Positions 1 to 12,405 of a DNA stretch of 38,017 bases are shown piece after piece. The stretch is from an uncultured Lachnospira sp. (GTDB lineage: Bacteria > Bacillota > Clostridia > Lachnospirales > Lachnospiraceae). A model generated the notes under the pieces. The model was not told the DNA's origin and ran no database searches. It worked only from the letters and a program-made list of their open reading frames with translations. The first letter of the stretch is position 1. Every line of letters begins with the position of its first letter. Both the position numbers and the translations under genes were made by a program. The stretch lies in NCBI GenBank assembly GCA_944381165.1, contig CALWKC010000027.1, positions 1-38,017 of the forward strand. The letters are read 5' to 3'.

Positions 1-1
1 A

Positions 2-61
2 TATCATTGGAAGTACAAGATGGACGACTTTGGCAGCAAATCAATTGGTCTAGCTAATTAA
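2..61 (+). CDS. Possible 3' end of a plus-strand gene entering from the left
   Basis: One frame is open from the window edge to a TAA at 59-61 and reads as a mixed, protein-like C-terminus ending in GSKSIGLAN. It converges on the truncated minus-strand gene ending at 63. It is too short to identify; a chance open frame of 19 codons is entirely possible. Confidence 0.2.
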   Translation, partial: YHWKYKMDDFGSKSIGLAN

Positions 62-62
62 T

Positions 63-224
63 TTATATTCTACTAGGTGGAACAAATTGCATAAAATCAA
101 CTCGCTTTACATCTCTTGTTCCATAGTCAATGCTGACTTCTCTCGCCCAGTATTTCCCCATTCCGTTAAATTTTTCTTTCACAAGTAATTTGCTTAGAAA
201 CTCTGTTGTTTCACGTCTGTTCAC
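63..224 (-). pseudogene. Truncated element gene (MNRRETTEFL family)
   Basis: A GTG start, preceded by AGGTGG and overlapping the upstream gene by 14 bases, opens a 53-codon frame beginning MNRRETTEFLSKLL and containing GMGKYWAREVSIDYG and KRVDFMQF. I recognise this from memory as the N-terminus of a longer hypothetical protein common in clostridial mobile elements. Here the match stops after VPP, and three unrelated residues lead to a TAA. No other frame downstream resumes the expected protein, so a deletion or insertion joint near position 75 is more likely than a point frameshift. Function unknown. Confidence 0.55.
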
Positions 225-507
225 CTGTGCCACCTGCCTTTATGATTTCGATTGCCTTTTTGTAAGCATCAACCTTTGCCTCTGCCAACTCCATGAAATG
301 TTGTTTGCCTTGTTTATCATACTCTGATGCTAACTCTACGTTATATCTTTTGAGAAACTTTAATTCCTCAAGGGCTTTTTTCATATCGCAGACAGTTGGC
401 TGCGCGTCTATTATTTTACAAAATGTCATTCCCTCAGATGCCATATTAATCTCGGTGGCTGCTGCCGTTATCTGTGTTTTAAAATAATCTGCGTCAATTA
501 GTCTCAT
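211..507 (-). CDS. Hypothetical element protein, 98 aa
   Basis: Begins MRLIDAD, a start typical of small proteins in clostridial phages and ICEs. The rest is mostly helical and charged, with a long predicted helix (residues 40-90) rich in Lys, Glu and Ala. No catalytic motif or membrane segment is visible. The start overlaps the stop of the upstream gene by 4 bases and its end overlaps the next small gene by 14, so it is translationally coupled within the minus-strand operon. No function can be assigned. Confidence 0.6.
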   Translation of the reverse strand: MRLIDADYFKTQITAAATEINMASEGMTFCKIIDAQPTVCDMKKALEELKFLKRYNVELASEYDKQGKQHFMELAEAKVDAYKKAIEIIKAGGTGEQT

Positions 508-938
508 TTTCCTGTCTCGCTTTCCTTTATGTTCCTCAACGCTTCCTCGGCTTCTTCTTGCGTGAGGAATACGGTTTTGCCAAAATCAGAAATATCCGGC
601 TCTATTTCATCTAAACATTCACTCGGGCAATCTCCAATCAGATTAGAATGCGCGCTACATTGATATGTTATTTCGTTATCAATGACAACTGAATCCACAG
701 TGTATGACAAAATACCAAGCACGCCGCAATATGCATACACCGTACTACCAACCTTACACGGCAACCGCAGGAGCAAGCCCTGTTTCTCTAAATCCCTATA
801 CTTTTTCAATTCTTCAAGTGCTGCGGTTATAAGACTATCCGCCTCGAGTATTTGTCCGTAACGATTTGCATATATTGACATGTATTTTTTTTGAAAACAT
901 ATCAATTCCGACAATACCTCATCACTTATTTTTATCAT
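504..938 (-). CDS. Hypothetical phage/ICE protein, 144 aa
   Basis: I place the start at the internal ATG at 938 rather than the longest-frame start at 1004, because GAGGAGG lies 8-9 bases upstream and the longer version would overlap the DUF551 gene. The N-terminus is an amphipathic helix. The middle carries LPCKVGSTVYAY, a short beta-barrel-like motif seen in many hypothetical phage proteins, and the C-terminus has FGKTVFLTQEEAEEAL, also common in that group. Four to five cysteines are scattered without a clear zinc pattern. It is coupled to the next gene by a 4-base overlap. Function unknown. Confidence 0.65.
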   Translation of the reverse strand: MIKISDEVLSELICFQKKYMSIYANRYGQILEADSLITAALEELKKYRDLEKQGLLLRLPCKVGSTVYAYCGVLGILSYTVDSVVIDNEITYQCSAHSNLIGDCPSECLDEIEPDISDFGKTVFLTQEEAEEALRNIKESETGK

Positions 939-957
939 ATACGCCCTCCTCAACTTT

Positions 958-1329
958 TTAAATTCCTTTGTATGCCGCCGGCAGTGACTGCCATGCGATA
1001 ACATATGTAGTTATGTCGTTCATCCAGTCATCTTTAAATATATAGCCGCCTTGATACTTTTCAAAAGTTGCGTCTTTTGTCTCGTAAATAGGCTTTCCAA
1101 CATCCATATCGTATTTTACAGTTACTCTGCACCTTGATACATTCGGTAATCTCTCGCTGCATGGAATCCATCCGCTGTTGTACTCGGCAGCTATCTGTTC
1201 TACGGCTTCTATCGCGTTATTACACCGTATATAATTATCCGATTCCCTATCTCCTTCATATATTGGGGCATCTTCCTGTATAGCAATTTCTTTCAATTTT
1301 TTAATAATCTTCTCAAATACTTCCTGCAT
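958..1329 (-). CDS. DUF551-type protein, 123 aa
   Basis: The core WIPCSERLPN (residues 53-62), followed about 50 residues later by TYVIAWQSLPAAY, is the signature of DUF551, a small domain found almost only in phages and integrated elements. The N-terminal 45 residues form a helical region. The biochemical role of DUF551 is not known. The gene lies in the minus-strand operon, 20 bases ahead of the next start. The 58 bases upstream contain the divergent promoter of tRNA-Ala, so the operon mRNA must read through that region antisense. Confidence 0.75.
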   Translation of the reverse strand: MQEVFEKIIKKLKEIAIQEDAPIYEGDRESDNYIRCNNAIEAVEQIAAEYNSGWIPCSERLPNVSRCRVTVKYDMDVGKPIYETKDATFEKYQGGYIFKDDWMNDITTYVIAWQSLPAAYKGI

Positions 1330-1351
1330 GCTATCCCTCGCTTTCTTCCTA

Positions 1352-1379
1352 TTGATTTTATTTTGTATAGTGTTATACT
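1352..1379 (+). promoter_or_regulatory. Promoter for the tRNA-Ala gene
   Basis: TTGATT at 1352-1357 and TATACT at 1374-1379 are separated by 16 bp, a good sigma-A promoter on the plus strand. The expected start point, about 7 bases downstream, falls at the first base of the tRNA. The tRNA is therefore an independent unit facing the surrounding operon. Prediction from motif match only. Confidence 0.6.
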
Positions 1380-1387
1380 GTCCTCAT

Positions 1388-1460
1388 GGGGCATTAGCGC
1401 AGTTGGGAGCGCGTAACATTCGCATTGTTAAGGTCACGGGTCCGAATCCCGTATGCTCCA
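1388..1460 (+). tRNA. tRNA-Ala (anticodon CGC)
   Basis: A 73-base gene folds as a full cloverleaf: a 7-bp acceptor stem, D stem GCGC/GCGC, anticodon stem TAACA/TGTTA with loop TTCGCAT (anticodon CGC, codon GCG), and T stem ACGGG/CCCGT. The acceptor carries the G3-U70 wobble pair, the known identity element for alanyl-tRNA synthetase, which confirms Ala. CCA is not encoded: the gene ends in CC plus discriminator A, followed by a T-rich run (TTTTTGTTTTT) that could end transcription. Position 55 is C in place of the usual T. It is on the strand opposite its neighbours and overlaps a small protein gene. Accessory tRNAs on mobile elements are thought to support translation of element genes or to protect against tRNA loss. 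Confidence 0.93.
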
Positions 1461-1606
1461 TTTTTGTTTTTATCTATATTTCTTTTACAAAATTCTTTAC
1501 TTCCGCAGCCATACACCTGCTGCCCCTTGCTGTTAGTTCCAAGCAAAACTCCAAACTCACACTTGTCGCACTGTTTATCTGATATGCTGTTGATGTTGAT
1601 TGACAT
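1394..1606 (-). CDS. Small Cys-rich protein overlapping tRNA-Ala antisense
   Basis: The start codon overlaps the preceding stop (TAAATG), with GAGGAGG in front, so translation is likely. Residues 1-48 are protein-like and carry CDKC (14-17), GCG (around 34) and FC (around 40), a possible metal-binding set. From about residue 50 the frame reads antisense through tRNA-Ala and yields the tail GAYGIRTRDLNNANV, which is the familiar reverse translation of a tRNA gene and not an evolved protein tail. Either the gene once ended before the tRNA inserted, or the protein really has an antisense-tRNA tail. Function unknown. Confidence 0.55.
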   Translation of the reverse strand: MSININSISDKQCDKCEFGVLLGTNSKGQQVYGCGSKEFCKRNIDKNKNGAYGIRTRDLNNANVTRSQLR

Positions 1607-2959
1607 TTAATCCTCCTCAATATTCATATCATTAAAATTCATCTGGCCTTCAAGCTCATCATCTGTCATTAGATTTCTTATATTCTTAAGTTCTTCAAGA
1701 ATTGTCCTTGCGTTTGCCTCAGCTGCTGCCACATCATGCATTTGCGATGTAAGTGGCGATAATGGAAAATCATTAGCTGTGAGATATATCTTTTGAGCTG
1801 CCTCTTTAATCAGTCTCCAGCTTTCGGTTATCTCCTCGTCTTCAGTCTGATTGTCAGTGGCTTCTTTAAAATCGCTTCCGCATTGAGTATTTACGGCGTT
1901 TTTCGGCATTTCAGGCATTGAACTGTTTGGCGTATTAAAATCGCTCTCGCACTGAGTATTTATCACGTTTTCCGGCTCTTTCGCCTGCAAATCTTCTCCC
2001 GCTGTCTCGGAATTGCCCTCACATTTAGTATTTATCGCGCTTTCCGGCATTTTTGGCTCTAAATCGTCTCCTGCTGCCCCGGAATTGCCCTCGTATTTAG
2101 TATTTACCGCGTTTCCTTCGGTTTTGGGTGGCTTTGCTTTAACTACCTTCTTGTCTTTTCGCTTCTTTTCAGTCTCTTCTTTTTGCTCTTCAGGAAATTT
2201 TTCGCCGTATTTATCCTCCCACGCTTTTTTTAAGTCCTCCGGTGTACCGATTTGATTTTTTACCGCCTCAGTGACCGAGGCAGCGTCATATTCTGTTTTT
2301 TCCATGCTCCGCACGTTTGTAAGCGTTACTTTCTGAAGTTCTGCTTTTACTGACATCATTACTCTTCCAACACCCTGTATTCTTATCGAATATATCATCT
2401 CGCCCGCAGGGGATAGCGTTTCAAATAAGTTGTCAGTCTTGGACAGGTTAAGATACAGCTCAGGCTCGTCATGTAAGAGCTGATGAAACGCCTGCTCAAG
2501 CTCGTTTAATCCGGCCATGGCCCCGTCTGTCCCCTCGGCAAGGATTTCAAGGTCAGATACTTTCCGCTCCTCATCAAATTCCTTTTTTAAGTCCTCTATC
2601 TCTGCTCTGCTGTAATCCGATGAGAGCTCCTCGTTAATCTCATCGGGAAGCTGGAGCATGACCGCAAGTTTTGAGTATCCAAAGCCTCTGTATTCTGTTT
2701 TTAAGTACTGTGAGTTCCCTCCTTCCGAAAATCTGTCGTTAATGTTTATAAACCTTGATACCATGGTCTTGTCTATGTTGTATTCGGCGCGCGCAAATTC
2801 GTTTACATTCGTGTATCCGGAGCCGGAGAGTATGTCTGTGTCCCTGGCCTGCTTTAAAAGCCAGCCTATACGTACAAACCCTTCGGCGGACTCAAGCATC
2901 TGCTTGTCCAGCTCTTGCTTGAAGGTTTTAAAGTCTTTTATAGATGCTATCTCGCTCAT
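1607..2959 (-). CDS. DUF3102-like element protein with tandem repeats, 450 aa
   Basis: The N-terminal 130 residues include EGFVRIGWLLKQARDT, NVNEFARAEYNIDKTMVSRFININDRF and a helical stretch resembling DUF3102-type domains (a helix followed by a helix-turn-helix-like part), found in element proteins near replication and partition genes. The middle (about 130-255) is helical. Residues 255-370 are low complexity and hold four degenerate repeats built on the motif [AV][VI]NT[KQ][YC]. The C-terminus (375-450) is helical and acidic. The start overlaps the end of the PcfJ gene by 4 bases. A role in element replication or maintenance is suggested by position only. Confidence 0.6.
   Translation of the reverse strand: MSEIASIKDFKTFKQELDKQMLESAEGFVRIGWLLKQARDTDILSGSGYTNVNEFARAEYNIDKTMVSRFININDRFSEGGNSQYLKTEYRGFGYSKLAVMLQLPDEINEELSSDYSRAEIEDLKKEFDEERKVSDLEILAEGTDGAMAGLNELEQAFHQLLHDEPELYLNLSKTDNLFETLSPAGEMIYSIRIQGVGRVMMSVKAELQKVTLTNVRSMEKTEYDAASVTEAVKNQIGTPEDLKKAWEDKYGEKFPEEQKEETEKKRKDKKVVKAKPPKTEGNAVNTKYEGNSGAAGDDLEPKMPESAINTKCEGNSETAGEDLQAKEPENVINTQCESDFNTPNSSMPEMPKNAVNTQCGSDFKEATDNQTEDEEITESWRLIKEAAQKIYLTANDFPLSPLTSQMHDVAAAEANARTILEELKNIRNLMTDDELEGQMNFNDMNIEED
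1860..2115. repeat. Four degenerate 69-72 bp tandem repeats inside a CDS
   Basis: Four copies of a unit of about 70 bp lie in frame in the 450-aa gene. Each contains a version of (C/T)GAGTATTTA or TTAGTATTTA on the plus strand and encodes [AV][VI]NT[KQ][YC]E[GS] with a variable linker rich in Pro, Glu and Ser. The unit is a multiple of three, so copy-number change would keep the frame. Confidence 0.7.
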
Positions 2960-4887
2960 GCTATCCTCACCCTTTCTTTTCTGTTTAAATACTCTGTATA
3001 ATCTTTTAAAAATTTCTCTATAAGCTCATAGTCAGGCTTTGTGTCGTTTTGCCCATACCACTGCATTACTTTGTCACCTGAAATTTCTACCGTGATGTAT
3101 GGTATTTGCGGCTCTCTTGTTTTCCTTAAGACAAGTATGTATGCTTTACCGGCGTTGTAGTTTGACATGTATCTTTGATTGTCACTGCCAACGCAGTGAT
3201 GAAGCGTTTTACCTTCAAGTACAATCTCCTCCGCGTTGTGCGCCGGGCGGATTATATAATCTGACTGCTGCCATGTGTATTTTTTTTCTATTCTCCTGCA
3301 TACCTTAGGTATATCCGGATATTTTTTTAACATGTCTGTTATATATGTCTTGTTTTTTAATTTCTCCTCCTGCTGTCTCAACTCAGACCATTTCTGCCTT
3401 AAACTTTTCGGGTGCAGATATACTTCGTTTGTAAGATCGTCCCCCCTTGCAGCTCTAGCTCTTATGTAGTCCGAATATTCTGTTAAAGTGTTTGGAATGC
3501 TGCCGCTGTATTCGTTCCTGGCTTTTTCAAGATAATTCCAAAGTCTTACAATACTTTGATATTTAAGAGGCACTTCGGTATCTTTTTTCCACATGTAATT
3601 CATGCATCTTTTCAGTTTGTGCAGCGTTTCTATATTTTTAAGCGGCACGTTGTTTCTCTCTGCACACTTTAATGTCTTCAGCCGGCTGTATGCATCGCTT
3701 TTATCTTTAATAAGCCAGTTGTACTCGTTTTTTGATATACATAAAAAATCCGTAAGCCTGTCTGCTTTTTTGTTAAATTCTCTTATATGTCCGCTCTTGA
3801 AATAAATTTGCCTTGCTATTGTTGTAAGCTCTGCTTTTATCACGCTTTCAATCTGAGGACAGTTTGCGTATGTCTCAAGTTCCTTAAGTGCTTTAGTATC
3901 ACTGTAATAATTAGTTTCAAGCAGCCTGAATTCTTTTACAGGAAAGTATCTTAAGTCGGATGATAAAAGAGCATTTTCAAAATTAAAGCTTGCGTCAAAC
4001 GGATATTCGTTTGCATACGGAAGCCAATGCTCGCGTTCGCCCCCCGTATTTTCATAACTTTTGAAGAAATTTCTTCTGAAAAACTGTCTCAAAACCTCTC
4101 TTGTCTTTATTGACATCTGTGTATCTGTATATCTTGAAATCCACGTCTGGTAGCCTCGCGCTATAAGAGTGCCGTCGGGAAGCGTCTGGTATACTAAAGC
4201 GTTAAATATTGTGCATGTGTTTTTTGCTCTGCCGGATTGAACGAGTTGACCCGTACATCCGCACAGGCAGCATTTTTCAAAATTTCCCCTGTGCGGAGTT
4301 TCGTGCACAGGATAAGTAGGATAATCAATACAGGCTTTTATTCTTTTTTCGTATATTCCGCCGCACTGACAGCACCGGTATTCTGCCTTCGTTCCGTGCC
4401 TCTTATAAAGAATTACATTGCTTTTATCCGCATACTCTTTTATTTTTTTCTTAAGATAGTCCGGCTCCGGAGGGACTGCTGCCATGAGCTTCTCCATTTC
4501 AGTTTGTTTTTTTATTCTCTCTTTTTCTGTTTTGGCTGAATCGATCCTGTTTTCTAAGGCGTAGATATAGTCAGCCTCATCGTCCAGTATCCTTTTTCCT
4601 GCCGGTCCGTAAAATTCTTTTATCGCTTTAAAACTTTTGTTTGAAAATACAGCCCTTTCTATCTGTGTCCAGTGATAATTATTATATTTTTGCCTTTTAT
4701 CCCACTGTTGTGTTCCGTAGTCGTAGTGTGCAAATTCATTTTCGGTGTACGCCATGCGGTATAATGCGTCGCCGTGTATGTCTATTATCAGATGTTTTAC
4801 ATTGTCTATTGTCACAATCACAGCCGAAGCATTTTTACCGCGCCCATGTCTTATCTCCGGAAGCTTCAGTATTTTTGCTTTTTTCAT
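2956..4887 (-). CDS. PcfJ-like protein, 643 aa
   Basis: The C-terminal region (about 550-630) has the PcfJ-family pattern: EGKTLHHCVG, RYMSNYNAGKAYILVLRK, PYITVEISG, then MQWYGQNDTKP. Residues 170-215 add a Cys-rich part (CCQCGG and CCLCGCTG) that could bind zinc. The centre is helical and unassigned. PcfJ was named from the pCF10 conjugative plasmid and is common in Firmicutes ICEs and phages; its biochemical role is not established. The PcfK gene lies one base upstream, the usual pairing. Length is in the range I expect for long PcfJ members. High confidence in family, none in mechanism. Confidence 0.85.
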   Translation of the reverse strand: MKKAKILKLPEIRHGRGKNASAVIVTIDNVKHLIIDIHGDALYRMAYTENEFAHYDYGTQQWDKRQKYNNYHWTQIERAVFSNKSFKAIKEFYGPAGKRILDDEADYIYALENRIDSAKTEKERIKKQTEMEKLMAAVPPEPDYLKKKIKEYADKSNVILYKRHGTKAEYRCCQCGGIYEKRIKACIDYPTYPVHETPHRGNFEKCCLCGCTGQLVQSGRAKNTCTIFNALVYQTLPDGTLIARGYQTWISRYTDTQMSIKTREVLRQFFRRNFFKSYENTGGEREHWLPYANEYPFDASFNFENALLSSDLRYFPVKEFRLLETNYYSDTKALKELETYANCPQIESVIKAELTTIARQIYFKSGHIREFNKKADRLTDFLCISKNEYNWLIKDKSDAYSRLKTLKCAERNNVPLKNIETLHKLKRCMNYMWKKDTEVPLKYQSIVRLWNYLEKARNEYSGSIPNTLTEYSDYIRARAARGDDLTNEVYLHPKSLRQKWSELRQQEEKLKNKTYITDMLKKYPDIPKVCRRIEKKYTWQQSDYIIRPAHNAEEIVLEGKTLHHCVGSDNQRYMSNYNAGKAYILVLRKTREPQIPYITVEISGDKVMQWYGQNDTKPDYELIEKFLKDYTEYLNRKERVRIA

Positions 4888-4888
4888 A

Positions 4889-5371
4889 TCACGCCTCCAG
4901 ATAATATTCTCTTATGATTTCGTAAGCGCGGCCCATTCCGGGTATTCCCATCTTCACAGATGCATTTACTCCTGCTGCCTTAACGATGTCTTTATCAATC
5001 GTATATGAATTTTTCCAGCTCCATTTAAGGATTTTTCCTATACAGCCCTTTATGCTCTTTCCCTTCTTCCTGACCGCCTCGGCCATTTCGGGATGCTCGG
5101 TGCACTGAGCGGTTATGTAGTTTACCCAGTCCTCTACTATTTCAACAGGCTTGAGCTCGTCGGTTTCAACTTTAATCTTACCCAGCGCGGCTATGAGCGG
5201 AGTAGCGAGCTCGCTTACAGCGCCGTCTATGTAATCCTGAACGTCCTCTTTATCTATTCCGTTTTCAGCGGCAAGCTCGAACAGCGCCGCTGTATCACCT
5301 TCTTTTAGCTGCCCGGCTGCTGCCGCGTTAAGCTCCTGTGATGAATTAAATTCTCCGTATTTGTCAAACAT
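4889..5371 (-). CDS. PcfK-like protein, 160 aa
   Basis: The order PcfK then PcfJ, the acidic helical sequence, and the motif KGKSIKGCIGKILKWSWKN near residue 110 match the PcfK-like family. Two ATGs lie six bases apart. I prefer the second (5371), giving an MFDKYGEF start, because AAGGGG then sits 8 bases upstream; with the first ATG (5377) the spacing would be only 2. Function is unknown in the family; co-occurrence with PcfJ in conjugative elements is the main clue. It is an abundant-looking small acidic protein without membrane segments. Confidence 0.8.
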   Translation of the reverse strand: MFDKYGEFNSSQELNAAAAGQLKEGDTAALFELAAENGIDKEDVQDYIDGAVSELATPLIAALGKIKVETDELKPVEIVEDWVNYITAQCTEHPEMAEAVRKKGKSIKGCIGKILKWSWKNSYTIDKDIVKAAGVNASVKMGIPGMGRAYEIIREYYLEA

Positions 5372-5390
5372 ATGCATTCCCCTTTCAATT

Positions 5391-5579
5391 TTAAATTTTT
5401 CTTGTGTTCCAAAGCTCTATGACTTCCTCTGGTGTGATTAAATCCGGTGTCCTGCTGCCGCACTCTTCACATATAACCGTATATTTATCCCCGAAGCGGC
5501 TTTCTTTGTTTATGTAAAGTTTTCCTGCTCCGGAGCAGAACGGGCAGTTAAGAAGTTTTACCTCGCCTTTGCTAAGCAT
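5391..5579 (-). CDS. Lar-like restriction alleviation protein
   Basis: This 62-residue protein has the Lar-type layout: LLNCPFCSGAGKLY (C12, C15), a beta strand, then ICEECGSRTP (C37, C40) and a closing helix EEVIELWNTR. The two CxxC pairs form a zinc ribbon. The prototype Lar of the Rac prophage reduces type I restriction by favouring modification; many phage and ICE members are annotated by similarity alone. On a mobile element, helping incoming DNA avoid host restriction is a sensible role. It lies between PcfK and an HNH-like gene in the operon. Confidence 0.78.
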   Translation of the reverse strand: MLSKGEVKLLNCPFCSGAGKLYINKESRFGDKYTVICEECGSRTPDLITPEEVIELWNTRKI

Positions 5580-5589
5580 TTTTCCTCCT

Positions 5590-5907
5590 TTACAGATAGT
5601 TTTTCATGAACGCGCTCATCCACTCATCACGTGAATGCAGCTCTTCAAATTTCCTCTGACCGTCTTTTATAAGCTCAAGGTCAATATTCCTGTTTACATG
5701 AACAGCTTCCGGTCCTTCCCTGTGATGCCTTATACAAAGCCACACTTTAAGACCGTATTTTTCGGATATTTTTCTGTTTGCGGTGCCGTGCATTATGTGG
5801 TGTTGCTCAAGCCCTGCTGTGGAAAGGGGGCCATAATACCCCGACCGGGCAGCCTGTTTCCTGCACAGGTAGCATTCTTTATTTTTCTGCATTATACTTT
5901 TAGCCAT
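5590..5907 (-). CDS. HNH-like nuclease, Ref (RecA-dependent nuclease) type
   Basis: The protein has 105 residues with CYLC (C12, C15), LEQHHIMHGTANRKISEKYGLKVWLCIRHH (His36, His37, C58, His61, His62) and a distal His70 (AVHVN). This Cys4/His pattern is typical of phage HNH proteins, and the segment GTANRKISEKYGL is shared with the family annotated as recombination-enhancement RecA-dependent nuclease (phage P1 Ref). The family name is from memory. If correct, it would nick or cut DNA at RecA-bound sites during recombination. Its start overlaps the end of the RNase H-fold gene by 8 bases. Confidence 0.65.
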   Translation of the reverse strand: MAKSIMQKNKECYLCRKQAARSGYYGPLSTAGLEQHHIMHGTANRKISEKYGLKVWLCIRHHREGPEAVHVNRNIDLELIKDGQRKFEELHSRDEWMSAFMKNYL

Positions 5908-6346
5908 TGTCTGCCTCCTGCATTCTGTTTAGTATCTGCTCCTGCTCTGCAAAATATTTTCCGGTGTCTTTAGTAAACTTAACAACATGCTCTGTGGACA
6001 GGTTTATAAGCTGCTGCCACAATAGAGCGTTTTTTACGGGTCTGTTTCCTGATTTTATCCAGTTATTCTTTTTCCACTGATAAACCCATCCATTATTTAC
6101 GCTGTTTAAAATGTGCTCGCATTGAGTAAATACTCGTACTGAGCACGGTTTTGTAAGTCTTTTAAACGCCGCTATGATAGCTGTTAATTCAGACTGATTT
6201 TCGGTTGCATCCTTAAGCATTCCAGTTCCGTCACGCCGCACAGTTTTACCGTTCAGCTCGCACTCAAGAATGTATGAATAGTACGCATGCCTGTTTACCC
6301 TCGGTCCTCTTGCTGTTGTCGCTATGTAAATATTGACTTCCTGCAC
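5900..6346 (-). CDS. RNase H-fold protein lacking catalytic residues
   Basis: The RNase HI outline is visible: a beta strand NIYIATTARGP (5-15), an ELTAIIAAF helix (53-61), a strand RVFTQCEHILNSV (71-83), and WKKNNWIKSGNRPVKNALLWQQL (91-113), which matches the conserved handle region. The catalytic set is largely gone: the first Asp (normally in TDG) is Thr, the Asp of the usual TDS is Gln in TQC (74-76), and no C-terminal HxG...D is seen; only Glu53 fits. Nuclease activity is unlikely. The fold may have been kept for nucleic-acid binding. It sits directly after the HUH initiator gene, with one base between them. Confidence 0.7.
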   Translation of the reverse strand: MQEVNIYIATTARGPRVNRHAYYSYILECELNGKTVRRDGTGMLKDATENQSELTAIIAAFKRLTKPCSVRVFTQCEHILNSVNNGWVYQWKKNNWIKSGNRPVKNALLWQQLINLSTEHVVKFTKDTGKYFAEQEQILNRMQEADNG

Positions 6347-6347
6347 C

Positions 6348-7235
6348 TTATTCCCTCCTTCTCATCCTTGCGTTTATGTAGAAAAATCCGTTAAAATCGT
6401 TAAAATATACATTTGACTCCAAGAACTCATAGTCTGGGTACCATGAGCTTATTTCTTTTTCGCGCTCGGGCTTGTCCCGCACAAATTTGTCTATAAATTT
6501 TCCCACCGGGGCATAGTTTCCCTTACCGCCTTTCCTTTTGTTGTATACTTTCCTTACCCGGAACTGCTCAAGACCTGTCGAACAGTTCCAGCGCTTCTCG
6601 TATTTTGCCCTGTTTTTGTTCTTGGTTATGTAATTAGCCATTCCGGTAAGACCGTATCTGTCCTTCTGAAGCCGGCGCACCTGATTCCGGTTTCCGCATT
6701 TCCATAAGCTCTCCACAATATCCATATCCATATGTCCATCTATAATTAAGTGATAATGCCACCTGACTTTTGCATCATCATCATGCTCTATGACATACAA
6801 ATATTTTGCTTTGGCAAGACCGCGCTTTTTACGGTGGTAATTGATGCGGCGGATATAGTTGCTCATGATTTTTACTGCCTCTTTCATGTCAGCCGGCTCT
6901 CTTTCGTCCTCGCACGTGAGTGTCAGCCAGATGTCGTCATTGGTGAAGTTGTGCGTTATAAGTCTCTGGCAATATTTCACCGCATTTTTGTTGTTTAAGT
7001 TTTTCTGTGTCTCTTTGTTTTTTATCCTTCCCTCCGGAGGTACTTCGTCCATTGAGCGAAATTCGGGGAAGATTTCTATTTCAAGCTGCTCCCCGGCACG
7101 GATTTCTTTGCAGGCATATATTGATTTGTACCTGTTCTTTAACATGAACTCCAGGAAGAACTCATTTAAATCCTCTATGCTTTTGTTGTATGCAGCCTCA
7201 TAGTCATACTCGATGTAATTCATTCCCCGTCTCAT
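6348..7235 (-). CDS. HUH replication initiator (ORF2/G2P-type)
   Basis: The sequence around 147-168 reads YVIEHDDDAKVRWHYHLIIDG, with His160-Tyr161-His162 as the HUH metal-binding motif, and a downstream ANYITKN places Tyr202 as the likely nicking tyrosine. The arrangement matches replication proteins of the ORF2/G2P type used for rolling-circle replication by filamentous phages and many clostridial elements. It would nick one strand at an element origin and stay joined to the 5' end. I use the first ATG, with AAGGGGTAAGG upstream. The 175 bases in front hold a plus-strand hairpin with a T run and a promoter-like pair, possibly regulatory. Confidence 0.8.
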   Translation of the reverse strand: MRRGMNYIEYDYEAAYNKSIEDLNEFFLEFMLKNRYKSIYACKEIRAGEQLEIEIFPEFRSMDEVPPEGRIKNKETQKNLNNKNAVKYCQRLITHNFTNDDIWLTLTCEDEREPADMKEAVKIMSNYIRRINYHRKKRGLAKAKYLYVIEHDDDAKVRWHYHLIIDGHMDMDIVESLWKCGNRNQVRRLQKDRYGLTGMANYITKNKNRAKYEKRWNCSTGLEQFRVRKVYNKRKGGKGNYAPVGKFIDKFVRDKPEREKEISSWYPDYEFLESNVYFNDFNGFFYINARMRRRE

Positions 7236-7294
7236 GCCTTACCCCTTTTTCGCAGAGTTGTTAATATTTATTACAAGCCCGGAAAACAGTTATT

Positions 7295-7390
7295 TTGTGC
7301 CTCTTTTATGCTGTTTATGTAATAAATAAATGTTTGGTAAACTCCGTGTTTTAATTTTTTGAGAGGAGACGGCGCTCCTCTCATTTTTTT
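7295..7390 (+). ncRNA. Candidate antisense RNA opposite the rep leader
   Basis: On the plus strand, TTGTGC (7295-7300) and TGTAAT (7318-7323) are 17 bp apart. About 40 bases further on is a perfect 8-bp hairpin, GAGAGGAG/CTCCTCTC (arms 7361-7368 and 7375-7382), followed by ATTTTTTT: a sound intrinsic terminator. The unit would give an RNA of about 60 bases complementary to the mRNA leader of the replication initiator. No plus-strand protein explains the terminator. Rolling-circle plasmids often control Rep with such countertranscripts, but that link is inference. Confidence 0.4.
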
Positions 7391-7410
7391 GTGATATATA
7401 TTTAAGATGC

Positions 7411-7584
7411 TTATAAAAGCTGGGCGTTCTGCCGCCTGTCTATGTCGAACTTAAGCTGTCCTCCCGGCTCTTCCCTTATCTTTTTTATGTATCCGTTTTC
7501 CGCTTTCTGCCTTTGCGTCTCGCAGTCGCAGCGCTCCCCGGGGTCGAGGTGTGAGCCGCATCGCGGGCATATGTGAAAATACAT
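7411..7584 (-). CDS. Small zinc-ribbon-like protein, 57 aa
   Basis: AGGAGG stands 9 bases before the ATG, so translation is well supported. The N-terminus reads MYFHICPRCGSHLDPGERCDC: two CxxC/CxC pairs (C6, C9, C19, C21) that would bind one metal ion. The remainder is charged (QRQKAENGYIKKIREEPGG). Small proteins starting this way are frequent in clostridial integrative elements and phages, without a known role. It lies upstream of the replication initiator, in the same direction, separated by 175 bases. Confidence 0.7.
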   Translation of the reverse strand: MYFHICPRCGSHLDPGERCDCETQRQKAENGYIKKIREEPGGQLKFDIDRRQNAQLL

Positions 7585-7675
7585 TTGCTTTTACCTCCTG
7601 AGTGTGTTATATTTACATTGTATTTTTTAAATTTTTACCCCCTTGACCGGCTAAAAGAGCCGGTCTTTTTCTTTT
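7585..7675 (+). ncRNA. Second promoter-terminator pair opposing the operon
   Basis: TTGCTT (7585-7590) and TATATT (7608-7613) with a 17-bp spacer precede a perfect 8-bp hairpin, GACCGGCT/AGCCGGTC (7645-7652 and 7658-7665), with TTTTTCTTTT after it. This is a strong plus-strand intrinsic terminator overlapping the last codons of the 66-aa minus-strand gene. A transcript of about 55 bases antisense to the gene junction is possible. Alternatively, the terminator only blocks plus-strand read-through. On the minus strand the stem is followed by AAGGGGG and would not terminate. Confidence 0.4.
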
Positions 7676-7851
7676 ATGATGCGCGTAATCCTTCCGTCGT
7701 TTATCTCGTAACGGTATCCTTCAGCTTTACTGAATGCATACAGACCCGTAAGCGTCATCTCGTTGATGTCTGATTTGTAACATCCTTGTTTTATAGTGCA
7801 GAGCTGATGTCTTCTGCCTGCTGCTTTTCTTATTAAATCTTTGATTTTCAT
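7651..7851 (-). CDS. Hypothetical element protein, 66 aa
   Basis: ATG with GGAGG upstream (spacing 6). The sequence MKIKDLIRKAAGRR, then ALYAFSKAEGYRYEINDGRITRIIKE, looks like a small alpha/beta protein of the kind often found between an excisionase-like gene and the replication gene in clostridial elements. No motif allows a function. It sits 8 bases downstream of the upstream HTH gene, so they are cotranscribed. Its 3' end overlaps the plus-strand terminator at 7645-7665. Confidence 0.6.
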   Translation of the reverse strand: MKIKDLIRKAAGRRHQLCTIKQGCYKSDINEMTLTGLYAFSKAEGYRYEINDGRITRIIKEKDRLF

Positions 7852-7859
7852 ATAGCCTC

Positions 7860-8051
7860 CTATCTTGTGAGCATCTTCTGCCGCTCTTTTTCAAATTTCT
7901 CTGTATCAAATAAAATTGTGCTTTTTTTGCTTTGGCTCTGTCTTGTTGCGTATTTTTGACCTCTGCGGTGTGCCATTTGTCTTAAATAGCCATCTGTAAA
8001 TCCAAGCTCTTTAAGCTCCTGTATTGTCATAATAGGCTTTGGGTATTGCAT
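7860..8051 (-). CDS. Excisionase-like small HTH protein, 63 aa
   Basis: Start taken at the ATG at 8051, since GAGGTGAG lies about 5 bases ahead; the upstream GTG at 8060 has no site. The sequence MTIQELKELGFTDGYLRQMAHRRG (residues 8-31) has the look of a winged-helix excisionase/MerR-type recognition unit, and STILFDTEKFEKE is the following wing and helix. Such proteins direct excision or repress element genes. The integrase is 3 kb away on the other strand, so the pairing is not close. Assignment is by pattern only. Confidence 0.55.
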   Translation of the reverse strand: MQYPKPIMTIQELKELGFTDGYLRQMAHRRGQKYATRQSQSKKSTILFDTEKFEKERQKMLTR

Positions 8052-8126
8052 TTCTCTCACCTCGCATTCTTTAATTATTAGGCTGACTGTTTTGGCGGTT
8101 TGCTAGGTTGTTTAGATAGTTCAAAC

Positions 8127-8288
8127 CTACTGTAACTTTATTAAATATGAGAGAGGCGACCTGTCATCCCGTTTTCTCTCATATTTTATTCTCCGCATTG
8201 CATCACCAATTATTTCCCTTTCTTTTTTATTCAGGCCCACGGATTTGATTTTCAATCCCTGTTTTGCCTTAATTCCTCTAATTTTCAT
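8127..8288 (-). CDS. Small basic protein, 53 aa
   Basis: An ATG after AAAAAGGAA opens a 53-codon frame that is strongly basic (MKIRGIKAKQGLKIKSVGLNKKEREII, then MRRIKYERKRDDRSPLSYLIKLQ). Basic composition and an internal helix suggest nucleic-acid binding. The last third overlaps a perfect 12-bp inverted repeat (8143-8186), which is unusual inside coding DNA. Moderate support: good initiation context and a protein-like sequence, but no family is recognised. Confidence 0.45.
   Translation of the reverse strand: MKIRGIKAKQGLKIKSVGLNKKEREIIGDAMRRIKYERKRDDRSPLSYLIKLQ
8143..8186. repeat. Perfect 12-bp inverted repeat
   Basis: AAATATGAGAGA at 8143-8154 is matched exactly in reverse complement at 8175-8186, with a 20-base loop. 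There is no T run suited to termination of the minus-strand operon. It could be a protein-binding site (for example origin or transfer-related) or an mRNA hairpin; nothing decides this. Confidence 0.6.
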
Positions 8289-8303
8289 TTCCTTTTTCAC
8301 CTC

Positions 8304-8330
8304 TTAAACATCTTTCTTTTGAATTTTCAC
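8304..8330 (-). CDS. Possible 8-codon leader peptide
   Basis: GGAGGAGGTGAT, a near-complete match to the 16S anti-Shine-Dalgarno sequence, precedes a GTG that opens a frame of only eight codons (VKIQKKDV) before TAA. The 53-aa gene starts 16 bases after the stop. So strong a ribosome site before so short a frame suggests a leader peptide or a decayed gene start. No attenuator hairpin is evident next to it. Confidence 0.3.
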   Translation of the reverse strand: MKIQKKDV

Positions 8331-8376
8331 TTTTAAATCACCTCCTCCGCTAATTTGGTTGTTTCTGTAATCGCCA

Positions 8377-8395
8377 AAATCCATTTTAATTTGAT
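8377..8395. promoter_or_regulatory. Operator-like 19-bp repeat, distal copy
   Basis: AAATCCATTTTAATTTGAT here is identical to 8637-8655, 260 bp away. It overlaps the stop codon of the Cro-like gene. No promoter elements surround this copy, so it may be a remote operator for looping, or a roadblock. Confidence 0.5.
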
Positions 8396-8604
8396 TTAGT
8401 AGGCAAAAAAATATAGTCTAATGGCATCTCGTACAAAGCACTTAACTCCATTGCTTGGGAAGTTTTGGGCTCAGAAATACCCTTTTCCCAATTAACTACA
8501 GTCTGCTTACTAACATGCATAGCTTTTGCAACGCTATCCTGTGTCATACCGGCATTTACTCTCGCTGCTGCAAGACTTATTTGTATTTCTTTCTTCTTAC
8601 TCAT
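8386..8604 (-). CDS. XRE-family repressor, Cro-like, 72 aa
   Basis: Start set at the ATG at 8604, after AGGAG; the longer frame back to 8700 would read through the promoter. The helix-turn-helix is ISLAAARVNAGMTQDSVAKAMHVSKQTVVNWEKGISEPKTSQAMELSALY (about residues 7-57), followed by a short tail and no oligomerisation domain. It heads the minus-strand operon and faces a second XRE gene, as Cro faces cI. Its own promoter (8632-8660) is near perfect and holds one copy of a 19-bp repeat; a second copy overlaps its stop codon. Confidence 0.85.
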   Translation of the reverse strand: MSKKKEIQISLAAARVNAGMTQDSVAKAMHVSKQTVVNWEKGISEPKTSQAMELSALYEMPLDYIFLPTKSN

Positions 8605-8631
8605 ACTAGCTCCTTTTGTTTTAATGTCCAC

Positions 8632-8660
8632 ATTATAAATCCATTTTAATTTGATGTCAA
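8632..8660 (-). promoter_or_regulatory. Consensus promoter of the minus-strand operon
   Basis: Read on the minus strand, TTGACA (8660-8655) and TATAAT (8637-8632) are separated by exactly 17 bp: a perfect sigma-A promoter. It drives the Cro-like gene and probably the operon beyond. The spacer is the 19-bp operator repeat, so a bound repressor would occlude RNA polymerase. Confidence 0.85.
8637..8655. promoter_or_regulatory. Operator-like 19-bp repeat, promoter copy
   Basis: The second copy of AAATCCATTTTAATTTGAT fills the spacer between the -10 and -35 boxes of the Cro-like promoter. Related sites lie at 8666-8684 (15 of 19 bases) and, inverted, at about 8699-8712 within the opposite promoter. 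The layout fits repressor operators governing both directions. Confidence 0.6.
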
Positions 8661-8690
8661 TACTAAAATCTAATTTTATTTTATTTTCAG

Positions 8691-8719
8691 TTGCAAACAA
8701 TCAAATTTAGATGTATTAT
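8691..8719 (+). promoter_or_regulatory. Promoter of the second repressor gene
   Basis: TTGCAA (8691-8696), a 17-bp spacer and TATTAT (8714-8719) on the plus strand, about 25 bases before the ribosome site of the XRE gene at 8749. The spacer contains an inverted partial match to the 19-bp operator repeat. Confidence 0.65.
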
Positions 8720-8748
8720 TGTTGTACAAATAGATGGAGGTAAATTGC

Positions 8749-9132
8749 ATGTCCGATGAATTACAAAAAAAGATATTTTCACGTAATCTTAATAAATATA
8801 TTAATTCAAGCGGTAAAAAACAAAACGAAATTGCTGCTGATATAAATGTCATCCCTCAAACTTTAAACTCTTGGTGTACTGGTCAGGCAATGCCGAGAAT
8901 AGGAAAAATACAATTATTAGCAGATTATTTTGGAATTAATAAATCCGATTTATTAGAAGATAAAGACGATAGCAATGAAGATGATTACTACCTCAACGAC
9001 GATGCTCGTGACATGGCTCAGTTCTTATATGACAATCCTGATTACAAAGTTCTATTCGATGCATCAAGAAAGGTTAAAAAAGAGGATATTGAATTTGTCA
9101 AACAGATGTTAGACAGGTTCAATAGAGAATAA
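8749..9132 (+). CDS. XRE-family repressor (cI/ImmR-like), 127 aa
   Basis: The ATG at 8749 has GGAGG 9-10 bases upstream; the earlier ATG at 8734 overlaps that ribosome site. The helix-turn-helix covers about residues 5-60 (FSRNLNKYINSSGKKQNEIAADINVIPQTLNSWCTGQAMPRIGKIQLLADYFG). An acidic linker and a C-terminal helical domain of about 50 residues follow. It lies directly upstream of an ImmA-like gene, the arrangement of ImmR/ImmA in ICEBs1, where damage or quorum signals lead to repressor cleavage. It likely keeps the element quiescent. Confidence 0.85.
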   Translation: MSDELQKKIFSRNLNKYINSSGKKQNEIAADINVIPQTLNSWCTGQAMPRIGKIQLLADYFGINKSDLLEDKDDSNEDDYYLNDDARDMAQFLYDNPDYKVLFDASRKVKKEDIEFVKQMLDRFNRE

Positions 9133-9157
9133 TTGCATATGGGAAAGGGGGACGAGC

Positions 9158-9370
9158 ATGGAAACAACCGTAATATATGCAGATATGCCTACTACCATTA
9201 AGGCATACACAGTAATTAACAGCGATAATACATACACAATAGTGTTGAACTCTCGGTTGAGCAGAGAGCAGCATCTTCTGTCATACTATCACGAAATGAA
9301 GCACATTGAAAATAACGACTACGATAAAAAATGTGATGTAAATATTATTGAATTTGAAGCACATAGTTAA
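9158..9370 (+). CDS. Short ImmA/IrrE-like metalloprotease
   Basis: YYHEMKHIENNDY contains the zinc motif HEXXH (His45, Glu46, His49), and a possible third ligand Glu65 follows in IEFEAHS. The N-terminal strand pattern IKAYTVINSDNTYTIVLNSRLS matches the entry of ImmA/IrrE domains. At 70 residues it is much shorter than ImmA and ends right after the third ligand position, so it is either a minimal family member or a truncated one. It follows the cI-like repressor by 25 bp with its own GGGGG ribosome site. A role in cleaving that repressor is the natural guess. Confidence 0.65.
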   Translation: METTVIYADMPTTIKAYTVINSDNTYTIVLNSRLSREQHLLSYYHEMKHIENNDYDKKCDVNIIEFEAHS

Positions 9371-9389
9371 ATACAAGGGGGATATTCAA

Positions 9390-9875
9390 ATGAATACTAA
9401 TTCTGATAAAACGCTAAAAATTTTAATGTGGATATTGCTGATATTTTTTCCGCCCGTTGGGCTTTTTATTATGTGGTTGAAGCAGGATGAAATAGGCTTC
9501 AGCAAAAATAAAAAAATAATTATGACTGCTATTTTCAGCGTTTATACTGTAATTTTATTTATAGCAGTTATAAATCAAAATCCTGAAGACGTTGCATCAA
9601 ACAATATTTCTAATGTGCAGGCTACATATTACAGTGACAGCGAAACTGCTTCTCCAGATAATGAAGCAACGCAGCCTGAAACTATAGGACAAAACTTGCA
9701 AACGACTATCAGCGCGGAGACTACATTTGTTTTGAACAATTCAACCAAAAAATATCATAAACAGACATGTTCTGAGGTTGAGAGAATAAAAGAAGAAAAT
9801 AAGTCATATTACACTGGAACATCTGACGAAATTGAGAACATGGGATATTCTCCATGTGGAAAATGCAATCCATAA
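9390..9875 (+). CDS. Two-TM membrane protein with Ada-like zinc tail, 161 aa
   Basis: Start at the ATG at 9390 (AAGGGGG upstream), giving MNTNSDKTLKI; the frame also opens at 9348 but without a site and inside the ImmA-like gene. Two hydrophobic segments (about 9-28 and 40-58) form a short hairpin with a linker containing WLKQDEIGFSKNKK. A low-complexity linker rich in Ser, Thr and Glu follows. The last 50 residues (FVLNNSTKKYHKQTC...YSPCGKCNP) carry His, Cys, and CxxC in the pattern of the Ada metal-binding domain, seen at the C-termini of many Firmicutes surface proteins. Function unknown; it may sense metal or bind DNA at the membrane. Confidence 0.65.
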   Translation: MNTNSDKTLKILMWILLIFFPPVGLFIMWLKQDEIGFSKNKKIIMTAIFSVYTVILFIAVINQNPEDVASNNISNVQATYYSDSETASPDNEATQPETIGQNLQTTISAETTFVLNNSTKKYHKQTCSEVERIKEENKSYYTGTSDEIENMGYSPCGKCNP

Positions 9876-9882
9876 TTAATTA

Positions 9883-9918
9883 TAATAACGAGCGCCCCCG
9901 TGCTGGTAAGCAAGGCAT
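9883..9918 (+). terminator. Degenerate terminator-like element, copy A
   Basis: The segment CGCCCCCGTGCTGGTAAGC followed by AAGGCAT is a diverged version of the element just after the BRO gene (10891-10917). Its stem is weakened (GCT/AGC core) and it lacks a T run, so termination here would be poor. Confidence 0.4.
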
Positions 9919-9976
9919 ATAGGGTATATATCAATAAGACTACAAAAAACTTTAGATTATAAAAAGTAGAAGGAAG

Positions 9977-10885: not shown

Positions 10886-10890
10886 TAAAC

Positions 10891-10920
10891 GCCCCCTGTG
10901 CTGGTAACACAAGAGGCATT
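10891..10920 (+). terminator. Terminator of the BRO gene, copy B
   Basis: GCCCCCTGTG, loop CTGGTAA, CACAAGAGGC, then ATTTAA. The TGTG/CACA core plus the outer GCC/GGC pairs form a typical short stem. It begins six bases after the BRO stop codon. The same design is found in a weaker form before the gene. Confidence 0.55.
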
Positions 10921-10933
10921 TAACCGATACTTA

Positions 10934-11026
10934 CATAAGCGGTGCTTACGATATAATATCGCCTTCGACAAGCCATATTATATCACCAACAGCGCCACTT
11001 ATGCAAGTAGGCGCTACTTTTGCGCC
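10934..11026. repeat. Nested inverted repeats between BRO gene and integrase
   Basis: Outer arms CATAAGCGGTGCT (from 10934) and AGCGCCACTTATG (to about 11003) pair with one mismatch and one G-U. Inside them GATATAATAT (10950-10959) pairs exactly with ATATTATATC (10975-10984). A third small hairpin GGCGC/GCGCC follows (about 11010-11026). Together they could form a cruciform DNA site or a structured RNA about 90 bases long. No protein frame accounts for the region. Confidence 0.6.
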
Positions 11027-11034
11027 CTAAATTG

Positions 11035-11055: not shown

Positions 11056-11093
11056 AACTTTGTAATCGAATTTTTACAGGAAGGATGATTTTT

Positions 11094-12182
11094 ATGGCTA
11101 AATACACTAAAAGGAAAGACGGACGATATTGTACACATATAGATACCGGAACATATGATGAAAATGGAAAACGTATACGAATCACTGTGTATGCAAGAAG
11201 TATTCGAGAACTTGAGGAAAAAATTGCCCTTGCCCGCTATAATGCGCTTTCTGGCACTTTTTTAAAAAATCCCAATATACCATTCATAGAGTATGCAAAA
11301 ACATGGCTTAATACTAAGAAATCACTCTCAAACGCAACTTACAACGGTTATAAAAACATAATTTATAACCATTTTGATACAATAGGCCATATTCCTGTAT
11401 CAAAACTTGTCAAATCAGACATACAGGACTGCATTGCTGAGTTAAACGGACATTACGACCTGCAACAGCGCCTTAAAATTACTATAAACCAGATTCTTGA
11501 CGCAGCAGTAGAAGATAATATTGCCACCAAAAACGTATGCAGAGGAGTAAAACTTCCTCCTCGTAATGCTCTTCAAAAAAAGCGCGCGCTTACTCAAAGT
11601 GAAATATCTGCAATCAAAAAATGTTCATTAACAGAAAAAGAACGTGCTTTTATAGACATATTATACTACACAGGAATGAGGCGAGGAGAGGTGCTTGCAC
11701 TTACTGTATCAGATATTAACTTCAGCAAGAAAGAGATTACAGTTAATAAATCAGTTGCATTTATAGACAGCAATCAGCCTGTCATAAAACAACCAAAGAC
11801 AAGAAACGCATGCCGGACAATTACAATGCCTATCGCGCTCATTTTGAGTTTAAAACGCTATATTCCTACAATTAATACTCCTTATCTGTTTACGCGCCAA
11901 AATGGGGAAATAATGAGCGAGGGAAGCTATAAGTGTTTTTGGAGAGGCATATATAATAAAATCAACGCTCAGCTTGGCGGCAATAAAAATATACACGCAA
12001 CAGACTTAACCGTTCATATGTTCAGACATAATTACGCTACTATGCTTTATTATAATGGAATTGATGTAAAACAAGCTCAACTCTTGCTTGGTCATTCAAA
12101 CATAAAAACCACTCTTGAAATTTATACGCATTTTATTTCAAATGAAAGCACAAAGAAAAAGCTTCTTGAATTAAGCATGTAA
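11094..12182 (+). CDS. int: Tyrosine integrase, 362 aa
   Basis: Catalyses integration and excision of the element. Start set at the second ATG (MAKYTKRKDG), about 9 bases after AGGAAGG. Residues 1-50 form an arm-binding AP2-like domain (YTKRKDGRYCTHIDTGTYDENGKRIR), 60-150 the core-binding SAM-like domain, and 165-360 the catalytic domain with Arg196 (TGMRRGEVL), Lys235, His308, Arg311 (HMFRHNY), His334 (LLGHSN) and the nucleophile Tyr344 (EIYTHF). All key residues are present, so it should be active. It ends 151 bp from the 3' end of tRNA-Thr, with repeats of TGACTACCA directly after its stop, as expected for the attachment end of an element. Confidence 0.93.
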   Translation: MAKYTKRKDGRYCTHIDTGTYDENGKRIRITVYARSIRELEEKIALARYNALSGTFLKNPNIPFIEYAKTWLNTKKSLSNATYNGYKNIIYNHFDTIGHIPVSKLVKSDIQDCIAELNGHYDLQQRLKITINQILDAAVEDNIATKNVCRGVKLPPRNALQKKRALTQSEISAIKKCSLTEKERAFIDILYYTGMRRGEVLALTVSDINFSKKEITVNKSVAFIDSNQPVIKQPKTRNACRTITMPIALILSLKRYIPTINTPYLFTRQNGEIMSEGSYKCFWRGIYNKINAQLGGNKNIHATDLTVHMFRHNYATMLYYNGIDVKQAQLLLGHSNIKTTLEIYTHFISNESTKKKLLELSM

Positions 12183-12184
12183 TC

Positions 12185-12245: not shown

Positions 12246-12282
12246 AATAGCACACAAAATAAGACAACACCACATATGCAAA

Positions 12283-12325: not shown

Positions 12326-12333
12326 CCTCTTTA

Positions 12334-12405
12334 AGCTGATGGGGGGAGTCGGACCCCTGACCTCTTCATTACCAATGAAGTGCTCTACCACTGAGCTACA
12401 TCAGC
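12334..12405 (-). tRNA. tRNA-Thr (anticodon GGT)
   Basis: A 72-base cloverleaf: acceptor GCTGATG/CATCAGC, D stem GCTC/GAGC, anticodon stem CTTCA/TGAAG with loop TTGGTAA (anticodon GGT, codons ACC/ACU), discriminator T. The T stem has an A-C mismatch at its base and the T loop begins TCCGA, with C at the usual T55, as in the element tRNA-Ala. CCA is not encoded. Its 3' end faces the integrase, so it is the probable insertion landmark. Confidence 0.92.

What the first reader, a model, noticed from the sequence alone, without database searches (positions are those of the whole stretch)
1352..1460. Element-borne tRNA-Ala(CGC) with its own promoter, antisense to the operon
A complete tRNA-Ala with the G3-U70 identity pair, a promoter placed to start at its first base, and a T run at its end sits against the direction of all nearby genes. 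The operon mRNA passes it antisense. Host Clostridia normally read GCG with a UGC tRNA, so the CGC tRNA may be cargo that aids translation of GCG codons or resists tRNA-cutting defences.
Basis: partly seen in the sequence, partly recalled or inferred. Interest (0 to 1): 0.7.

Follow-up and report, generated by a model that had tools for sequence, protein, structure and literature searches.

The report
Prophage-borne alanine tRNA, anticodon CGC
A dormant virus in a bacterium's chromosome carries one complete alanine tRNA gene with its own promoter, apparently taken from a relative's chromosome; phage-borne tRNAs are a known kind of thing, and this one is modestly interesting because close relatives of the bacterium seem to lack that tRNA.

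Summary
A complete tRNA-Ala(CGC) lies at 1388-1460 (+), with G3-U70, a sigma-70-like extended -10 promoter ending 8 nt upstream, and a T run after it; neighbouring genes run the other way. It lies in the early region of a temperate prophage integrated at tRNA-Thr(GGT), with attR on another contig and unoccupied sites in relatives. A sister prophage in the same genus carries it at the same spot. The same backbone with CGC is common on chromosomes of related bacteria. One Roseburia copy equals the sister-phage tRNA 73/73 and lies 120 bp from tRNA-Thr(GGT), the attachment gene. In 22 genomes of the host genus a loose alanine-tRNA pattern finds only the two prophage copies. Codon compensation is contradicted for the genes seen: GCG is 17% of the element's alanine codons, 31% in host neighbours. 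Anti-defence was not testable. Best reading: a captured, probably functional tRNA 'moron' expressed in the lysogen; a passenger gene is the main rival. New member of a known kind.

The parts
1388..1460 (+). tRNA-Ala, anticodon CGC, G3-U70, A73, no encoded CCA, T-loop TCCGAAT (C55)
   Evidence: ARAGORN; Rfam; fold; comparison
1352..1379 (+). sigma-70-like promoter with extended -10 (TTGATT-N16-TATACT), -10 ending 8 nt before the tRNA
   Evidence: same arrangement upstream of homologous tRNA genes
1461..1471 (+). T run after the tRNA (TTTTTGTTTTT), possible end of transcript; no separate hairpin called
   Evidence: sequence
1394..1606 (-). 70-aa ORF with GAGGAGG shortly before its ATG; its last ~22 residues are the antisense of the tRNA; kept in the sister phage
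   Evidence: no Pfam or PHROG match
1607..2959 (-). 450-aa early phage protein, matches phrog_15077 (unknown function)
2956..4887 (-). PcfJ-like early protein
   Evidence: Pfam PF14284; phrog_8470
6348..7235 (-). replication initiation protein (REP_ORF2-G2P)
8386..8610 (-). HTH regulator at the head of the early operon
8734..9132 (+). phage repressor-like HTH protein
11085..12182 (+). tyrosine integrase
12334..12376 (.). attachment core: at least 43 bp identical to G000:C30:3192-3234 (attR)
12334..12405 (-). tRNA-Thr(GGT), the attachment gene, intact at the integrase end

Best explanation
A temperate phage carries a captured chromosomal tRNA-Ala(CGC) gene with its own promoter, placed between early genes and against their direction: a tRNA 'moron'. 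Shown: the gene, the promoter match and its conservation in homologues, the prophage, the attachment site, the sister phage, and near-identical chromosomal genes. Inferred: that it is transcribed from its own promoter while the early operon is repressed (lysogeny); that early lytic transcription runs over it antisense and lowers its output; that the host's CCA-adding enzyme and alanyl-tRNA synthetase (which recognises G3-U70; established knowledge, recalled) mature and charge it; and that it adds a dedicated GCG reader to a cell that otherwise would read GCG through a wobble tRNA. Any benefit is then to the tRNA pool of the lysogen, or as a spare when host tRNAs are depleted, rather than to the phage's own codon bias. 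The benefit may be small, and the gene may be partly a passenger.
For: Complete tRNA. Promoter position conserved with the tRNA in homologues. Prophage with integrase at tRNA-Thr(GGT), attR on C30 beside a GH25/LysM lysin and an AntA antirepressor; both chromosomal flanks found on opposite sides of tRNA-Thr in 12 of 19 other genomes of the genus in which the locus was found. Sister prophage in G020 with a large terminase gene downstream and the tRNA at the same spot. tRNA differs at 1 of 73 positions against 34 of 427 in its flanks (1 gapped column left out), one-sided Fisher p = 0.024. Only CGC alanine tRNAs found in 22 genus genomes. Sister-phage tRNA 73/73 identical to a gene in a Roseburia MAG.
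Against: The window copy has C55 where all 120 readable homologues of 126 have T, and its Rfam score is 63.3 against 67.5 for the sister copy, so it may be decaying; however the host's tRNA-Thr(GGT) also has C55, as do 8 of 14 tRNA-Thr(GGT) compared, the host's included. The low change rate may reflect the overlapping ORF instead. A related prophage at the same site in G014 has no tRNA-Ala in the 19.5 kb read, so the gene is dispensable to such phages. No expression data; no terminator hairpin called.
Confidence: 0.6

Rival explanations
1. Passenger: the tRNA was picked up by chance with its promoter, may be transcribed but gives no advantage, and is drifting; C55 in the window copy is a first sign of decay.
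For: The one change between the two phage copies falls on a position that is T in all 120 readable homologues. No tRNA-Ala in the related G014 prophage stretch; a tRNA near the 450-aa protein in 1 of 21 loci scanned, the G020 one. GCG is under-used in the element.
Against: Fewer changes in the tRNA than in its flanks (1 of 73 against 34 of 427); both promoter hexamers intact in both phages; C55 also occurs in the host's own tRNA-Thr(GGT).
Confidence: 0.3
2. Counter-defence: the tRNA replaces alanine tRNA that host anticodon nucleases or toxins destroy during infection, as reported for tRNA-Tyr and tRNA-Lys in other phages.
For: Precedent only: PMC11555353 (abstract) and PMC10264068 (abstract).
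Against: No defence that cuts alanine tRNA was sought in this host. The gene is antisense to the early operon, so early lytic transcription would tend to silence it (inference). It is a single tRNA, not an array.
Confidence: 0.15
3. Codon compensation for phage genes rich in GCG.
For: The anticodon was not found elsewhere in the genus.
Against: GCG is 41 of 236 alanine codons in 20 element ORFs against 178 of 576 in 24 host ORFs; 13 of 75 in six further ORFs of the sister contig; 11 of 51 in three prophage ORFs on C30. Most late genes were not available.
Confidence: 0.05
4. tRNA-dependent lysogeny: the phage tRNA replaces a host tRNA broken by integration.
For: The phage does integrate at a tRNA gene and does carry a tRNA.
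Against: The core of at least 43 bp leaves an intact tRNA-Thr(GGT) (66.1 bits), and the carried tRNA is alanine, not threonine.
Confidence: 0.01

Closest known systems
Chromosomal tRNA-Ala(CGC) of related bacteria, nearest: Roseburia sp. isolate SUG84, a MAG (JALEKJ010000014.1, L206)
   Same: tRNA 73/73 identical to the sister-phage copy and 72/73 to the window copy; 32 of 42 upstream bases shared with the sister phage, including TTGATT and TATACT
   Different: There it lies between tRNA-Thr(GGT) and tRNA-Val(CAC), near thiC and a sigma-factor gene; the phage copy stands alone in an early operon
Prophage accessory ('moron') loci antisense to lytic genes (PMC7067206, passages read)
   Same: Own promoter and opposite to the lytic operon, as that paper describes for one Salmonella prophage gene; the paper also mentions two tRNA genes in the centre of prophage BTP1
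   Different: Encodes a tRNA, not a protein; expression in the lysogen not measured here
Phage tRNAs that evade tRNA-cutting defences (PMC11555353, PMC10264068; abstracts read)
   Same: Phage-encoded tRNA
   Different: The tested cases in PMC11555353 are tRNA-Tyr and tRNA-Lys; no alanine-tRNA defence was identified here
tRNA-dependent lysogeny (PMC10865867; abstract and section list read)
   Same: Tyrosine integrase, attB in a tRNA gene, phage-borne tRNA
   Different: Here the host tRNA is left intact by a core of at least 43 bp (about 10 bp in that paper) and the isotypes differ

Membership tests
tRNA-Ala(CGC), Rfam RF00005 | Covariance-model score above gathering | tested here: met
   63.3 bits, cut-off 29
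tRNA-Ala(CGC), Rfam RF00005 | G3-U70 identity pair and anticodon CGC | tested here: met
   Sequence, ARAGORN anticodon
tRNA-Ala(CGC), Rfam RF00005 | U55 in the T loop (a hallmark recalled from general knowledge, not a strict requirement) | tested here: not met
   C55 in the window copy; T in the 120 of 126 homologues readable there. C55 also in 8 of 14 tRNA-Thr(GGT)
Temperate prophage | Integrase, repressor, attachment repeats, unoccupied site in relatives | tested here: met
Temperate prophage | Structural and packaging genes | tested here: inconclusive
   Large terminase in the sister contig, with a weak small-terminase match; lysin on C30; the middle of the window's own prophage was not found in the assembly
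Moron locus | Own promoter, between phage genes, absent from some relatives | tested here: met
   Promoter by sequence comparison only; absence
Moron locus | Own terminator and expression in the lysogen | not testable with these tools
   T run only; no hairpin called; no RNA data
tRNA-dependent lysogeny | Short core that fails to rebuild the host tRNA | tested here: not met
   Core of at least 43 bp, tRNA-Thr intact
[quoted passage not shown]
   Alanine against threonine
Defence-evading phage tRNA | Protects against a host tRNase | not testable with these tools
   Needs infection assays

The most novel reading that the evidence does not exclude
Lysogenic conversion of decoding: a phage whose attachment gene, tRNA-Thr(GGT), sits next to tRNA-Ala(CGC) in a Roseburia-like host picked up that neighbour and carried it into a genus that lacks it, giving lysogens a dedicated reader for GCG, which is (by a small margin) the most used alanine codon of the host genes seen; the antisense layout would switch the tRNA off when the lytic operon fires.
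Probability: 0.15. Interest if true: 0.6.

Novelty: new member of a known kind. Interest (0 to 1): 0.3.

Why it matters
What phage tRNAs do is still described as unclear, and many large surveys are of Mycobacterium phages (PMC13015707, abstract). Here is a single tRNA in a temperate phage, with an identical chromosomal relative of its sister copy, in a genus that seems to lack the tRNA, and with the matching codon under-used by the phage genes seen. That makes it a clean case for testing what a phage tRNA does when codon compensation does not fit.

Tried and rejected
Codon compensation: rejected for the genes available. tRNA-dependent lysogeny: not met. Chromosomal gene misjudged as element-borne: rejected by att sites, unoccupied sites and the sister phage. 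Chance tRNA-like sequence: rejected. The CGC tRNA in 'Bacteriophage sp.' record MT837637 (85% alike) was set aside because I read its other ORFs as cellular; no family search stands behind that. Of the 7 phage records (of 50,697) with a tRNA similar to this one, I scanned four for anticodons: one CGC, two GGC, one UGC. The 70-aa ORF as a known protein: no match at E 0.001 in Pfam or PHROGs or at E 5 in Pfam; its first 49 residues were found in 1 of 299 family genomes, the window's own, so G020, which has the ORF, was not in that sample. Relatives of two early proteins in IMG/VR: none confirmed. The tRNA pattern in IMG/VR: 0 stretches. Nucleotide search of 1-12400 in the phage records: no match. 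Donor by upstream sequence alone: not decisive, since L223 (33 of 45) and L065 (32 of 45) match the window's upstream as well as L206 does (32 of 45). The synonymous/non-synonymous counts for other genes were not used (the PcfJ one is out of frame); the 70-aa ORF gave 3 synonymous and 4 non-synonymous codon changes in its first 49 codons, which decides nothing.

Limits. In one search only 150 of 165 candidate tRNAs (G002) and 150 of 210 (G007) were scored; only G002 was then read around all its hits (42 tRNAs, 32 kinds, no alanine). In one search 40 of 57 candidates were scored. Two stretches of 5,000 N beside tRNA clusters in G002 are probably masked rRNA operons, so an alanine tRNA there could not be seen. 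In the genus search 13 of 22 genomes are at least 90% complete and at most 5% contaminated; the pattern allowed 3 mismatches, so a strongly diverged alanine tRNA could be missed. Six of 126 homologues could not be read at position 55.

Full report
What is there. A complete tRNA-Ala with anticodon CGC lies at 1388-1460 on the plus strand (ARAGORN; Rfam 63.3 bits). The minimum-free-energy fold is a cloverleaf; the centroid is not, and the energy is not exceptional (8 of 200 shuffles as good). G3-U70 and A73 read directly from the sequence. It lacks an encoded CCA, as do the other distinct tRNAs found in this genome (31 in all). TTGATT-N16-TATACT at 1352-1379, with TG before the -10, ends 8 nt before the gene. 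The simple scan finds such sites at about chance rate (4 against 2.4 +/- 1.7), but an extended -10 ending within 15 nt of the gene is found upstream of 55 of 121 homologous tRNA genes (window and sister phage included), against at most 4 in 300 rounds of shuffling. A T run follows the gene; no terminator hairpin was called there.

Setting. Minus-strand genes from about 8.6 kb down towards the start of the window include a replication initiator, an RNase H-like protein, a PcfJ-like protein and a 450-aa phage protein. A repressor-like protein, a Bro-N protein and a tyrosine integrase run on the plus strand up to 12182. tRNA-Thr(GGT) follows at 12334-12405. An exact copy of at least 43 bp of its 3' end lies on contig C30 at 3192-3234, between a GH25/LysM lysin, an AntA antirepressor and an HTH gene on one side and chromosomal genes including purA on the other. 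In 12 of 19 other genomes of the genus in which the tRNA-Thr locus was found, matches to the two chromosomal flanks lie on opposite sides of it. So 1-12333 is one end of a prophage. The middle was not found in the assembly: DNA of the sister contig beyond this point matches only window 72-263.

Sister phage. Contig C345 of G020, same genus, matches in pieces of 89-97% identity, goes on to a large terminase gene, and carries the tRNA at the same place with one difference in 73. Another G020 contig has the integrase end next to tRNA-Thr (96% over 534 bp). Between the two phages the tRNA shows 1 change in 73 and the flanks 34 in 427 (one gapped column left out; one-sided Fisher p = 0.024); both promoter hexamers are unchanged. 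A related prophage at the same tRNA-Thr in G014 has no tRNA-Ala in the 19.5 kb read. Of 21 loci around relatives of the 450-aa protein, one (G020) holds a tRNA.

Where it came from. The same tRNA backbone with CGC is common on chromosomes of relatives: of 98 genomes searched (own included), eight had a CGC copy at their fetched best locus, two of them these prophages; the six others lie among genes that I read as cellular. A pattern scan of named genomes gave at least 120 stretches. Apart from the G020 contig itself (L202), none of these encodes a relative of the ten early proteins tested, other than matches of the 70-aa ORF to the antisense of the tRNA; one of 125 loci has an integrase-like match, at 25% identity. 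Of 28 further loci drawn from 397 family genomes (one of them seen before), 27 have CGC and none matches the early phage proteins, one having that 25% integrase match. The sister-phage tRNA is identical, 73/73, to one in a Roseburia MAG (L206), the only identical copy among the 120 stretches besides L202, and not found among the 28. There it lies 120 bp after tRNA-Thr(GGT), with thiC and, within 3 kb, a sigma-factor gene 49% identical to the one beside this prophage. It was the only locus with tRNA-Thr(GGT) within 1.5 kb, of 126 scanned, in 119 of which ARAGORN called the alanine tRNA (several loci are short). That the phage picked up the neighbour of its attachment gene is therefore attractive, but it is an inference: the tRNA now lies about 11 kb from the attachment end, and upstream similarity alone does not single out this donor.

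Host gap. In 22 genomes of the genus a loose alanine-tRNA pattern finds only the two prophage copies. The 33 tRNA hits in the window's genome include no other alanine tRNA, and the 42 read in G002 include none. Stretches beside tRNA clusters in G002 read as N, so the expected UGC alanine tRNA could not be seen. The genus does have tRNAs with C34 for other amino acids, for example threonine, proline, lysine, glutamine and glutamate.

Function. GCG makes up 41 of 236 alanine codons in 20 element ORFs and 178 of 576 in 24 host ORFs of the window, ORFs picked by me (p = 6e-5); the lower G+C of the element (39.4% against 42.1%) may explain part of this. So the tRNA does not follow the codon need of the element genes seen. 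Its own promoter, its direction and its patchy presence fit an accessory (moron) locus expressed in the lysogen; a study of Salmonella prophages calls a region antisense to the lytic genes characteristic of such loci, and mentions two tRNA genes in one prophage (PMC7067206, passages). Protection against tRNA-cutting defences is reported for other phage tRNAs (PMC11555353 and PMC10264068, abstracts) but was not testable here. tRNA-dependent lysogeny (PMC10865867, abstract) is excluded by the long core and the different isotype. Base 55 is C in the window copy and T in the 120 homologues readable there; this may be early decay, but the host's tRNA-Thr(GGT) also has C55, as 8 of 14 tRNA-Thr(GGT) compared do.

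Overlap. A 70-aa minus-strand ORF (1394-1606) starts directly after the stop codon of the 450-aa gene, behind a GAGGAGG, and ends inside the tRNA, so its last residues are the antisense of the tRNA. It is kept in the sister phage with 94% identity. No family matches it.

Literature. I saw these listings: phage tRNA, prophage and codon usage (14 of 14 papers); phage tRNA and anticodon nuclease or host defence (20 of 65); tRNA, moron, prophage, lysogen (15 of 145); Lachnospiraceae, prophage, phage-encoded tRNA (0 papers); tRNA-antisense ORFs (2 of 3). None of the titles and abstract openings shown reports this gene; the unlisted papers were not seen. A broad computational study (PMC13015707, abstract) says that the function of phage tRNAs is unclear.

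Noticed in passing
window 12334-12405 and L047, L048, L052, L057, L058, L060, L061: tRNA-Thr(GGT) has C55 instead of the usual U55 (recalled as near-universal) in 8 of 14 genes compared, from the genus, family and order of the host (sequences).
   Followed up: partly
window 1394-1606: A 70-aa ORF with a good ribosome-binding site ends in the antisense of the tRNA (tail with GIRTRDL) and is kept in the sister phage.
   Followed up: partly
L062 5997-6365: The sister phage has an extra ORF between the 450-aa gene and the 70-aa ORF, so this spot gains and loses genes.
   Followed up: no
window 1866-2114: Internal repeats in the 450-aa gene, seen as off-diagonal matches to the sister contig.
   Followed up: no
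window 9977-10885: Bro-N domain protein between the immunity region and the integrase; phrog_15286, function unknown.
   Followed up: no
L360 (G014:C4), tRNA-Thr at 18990-19061: A related prophage at tRNA-Thr(GGT) in the same genus shows no tRNA-Ala in the stretch read.
   Followed up: yes
L332 (MT837637.1) 5914-5987: A record labelled 'Bacteriophage sp.' holds a tRNA-Ala(CGC), but its other ORFs look cellular to me; possible mislabelled contig.
   Followed up: partly
L297 3001-8001 and L298 2501-7501: Two 5,000-base stretches of G002 next to tRNA clusters read as N, probably masked rRNA operons.
   Followed up: no
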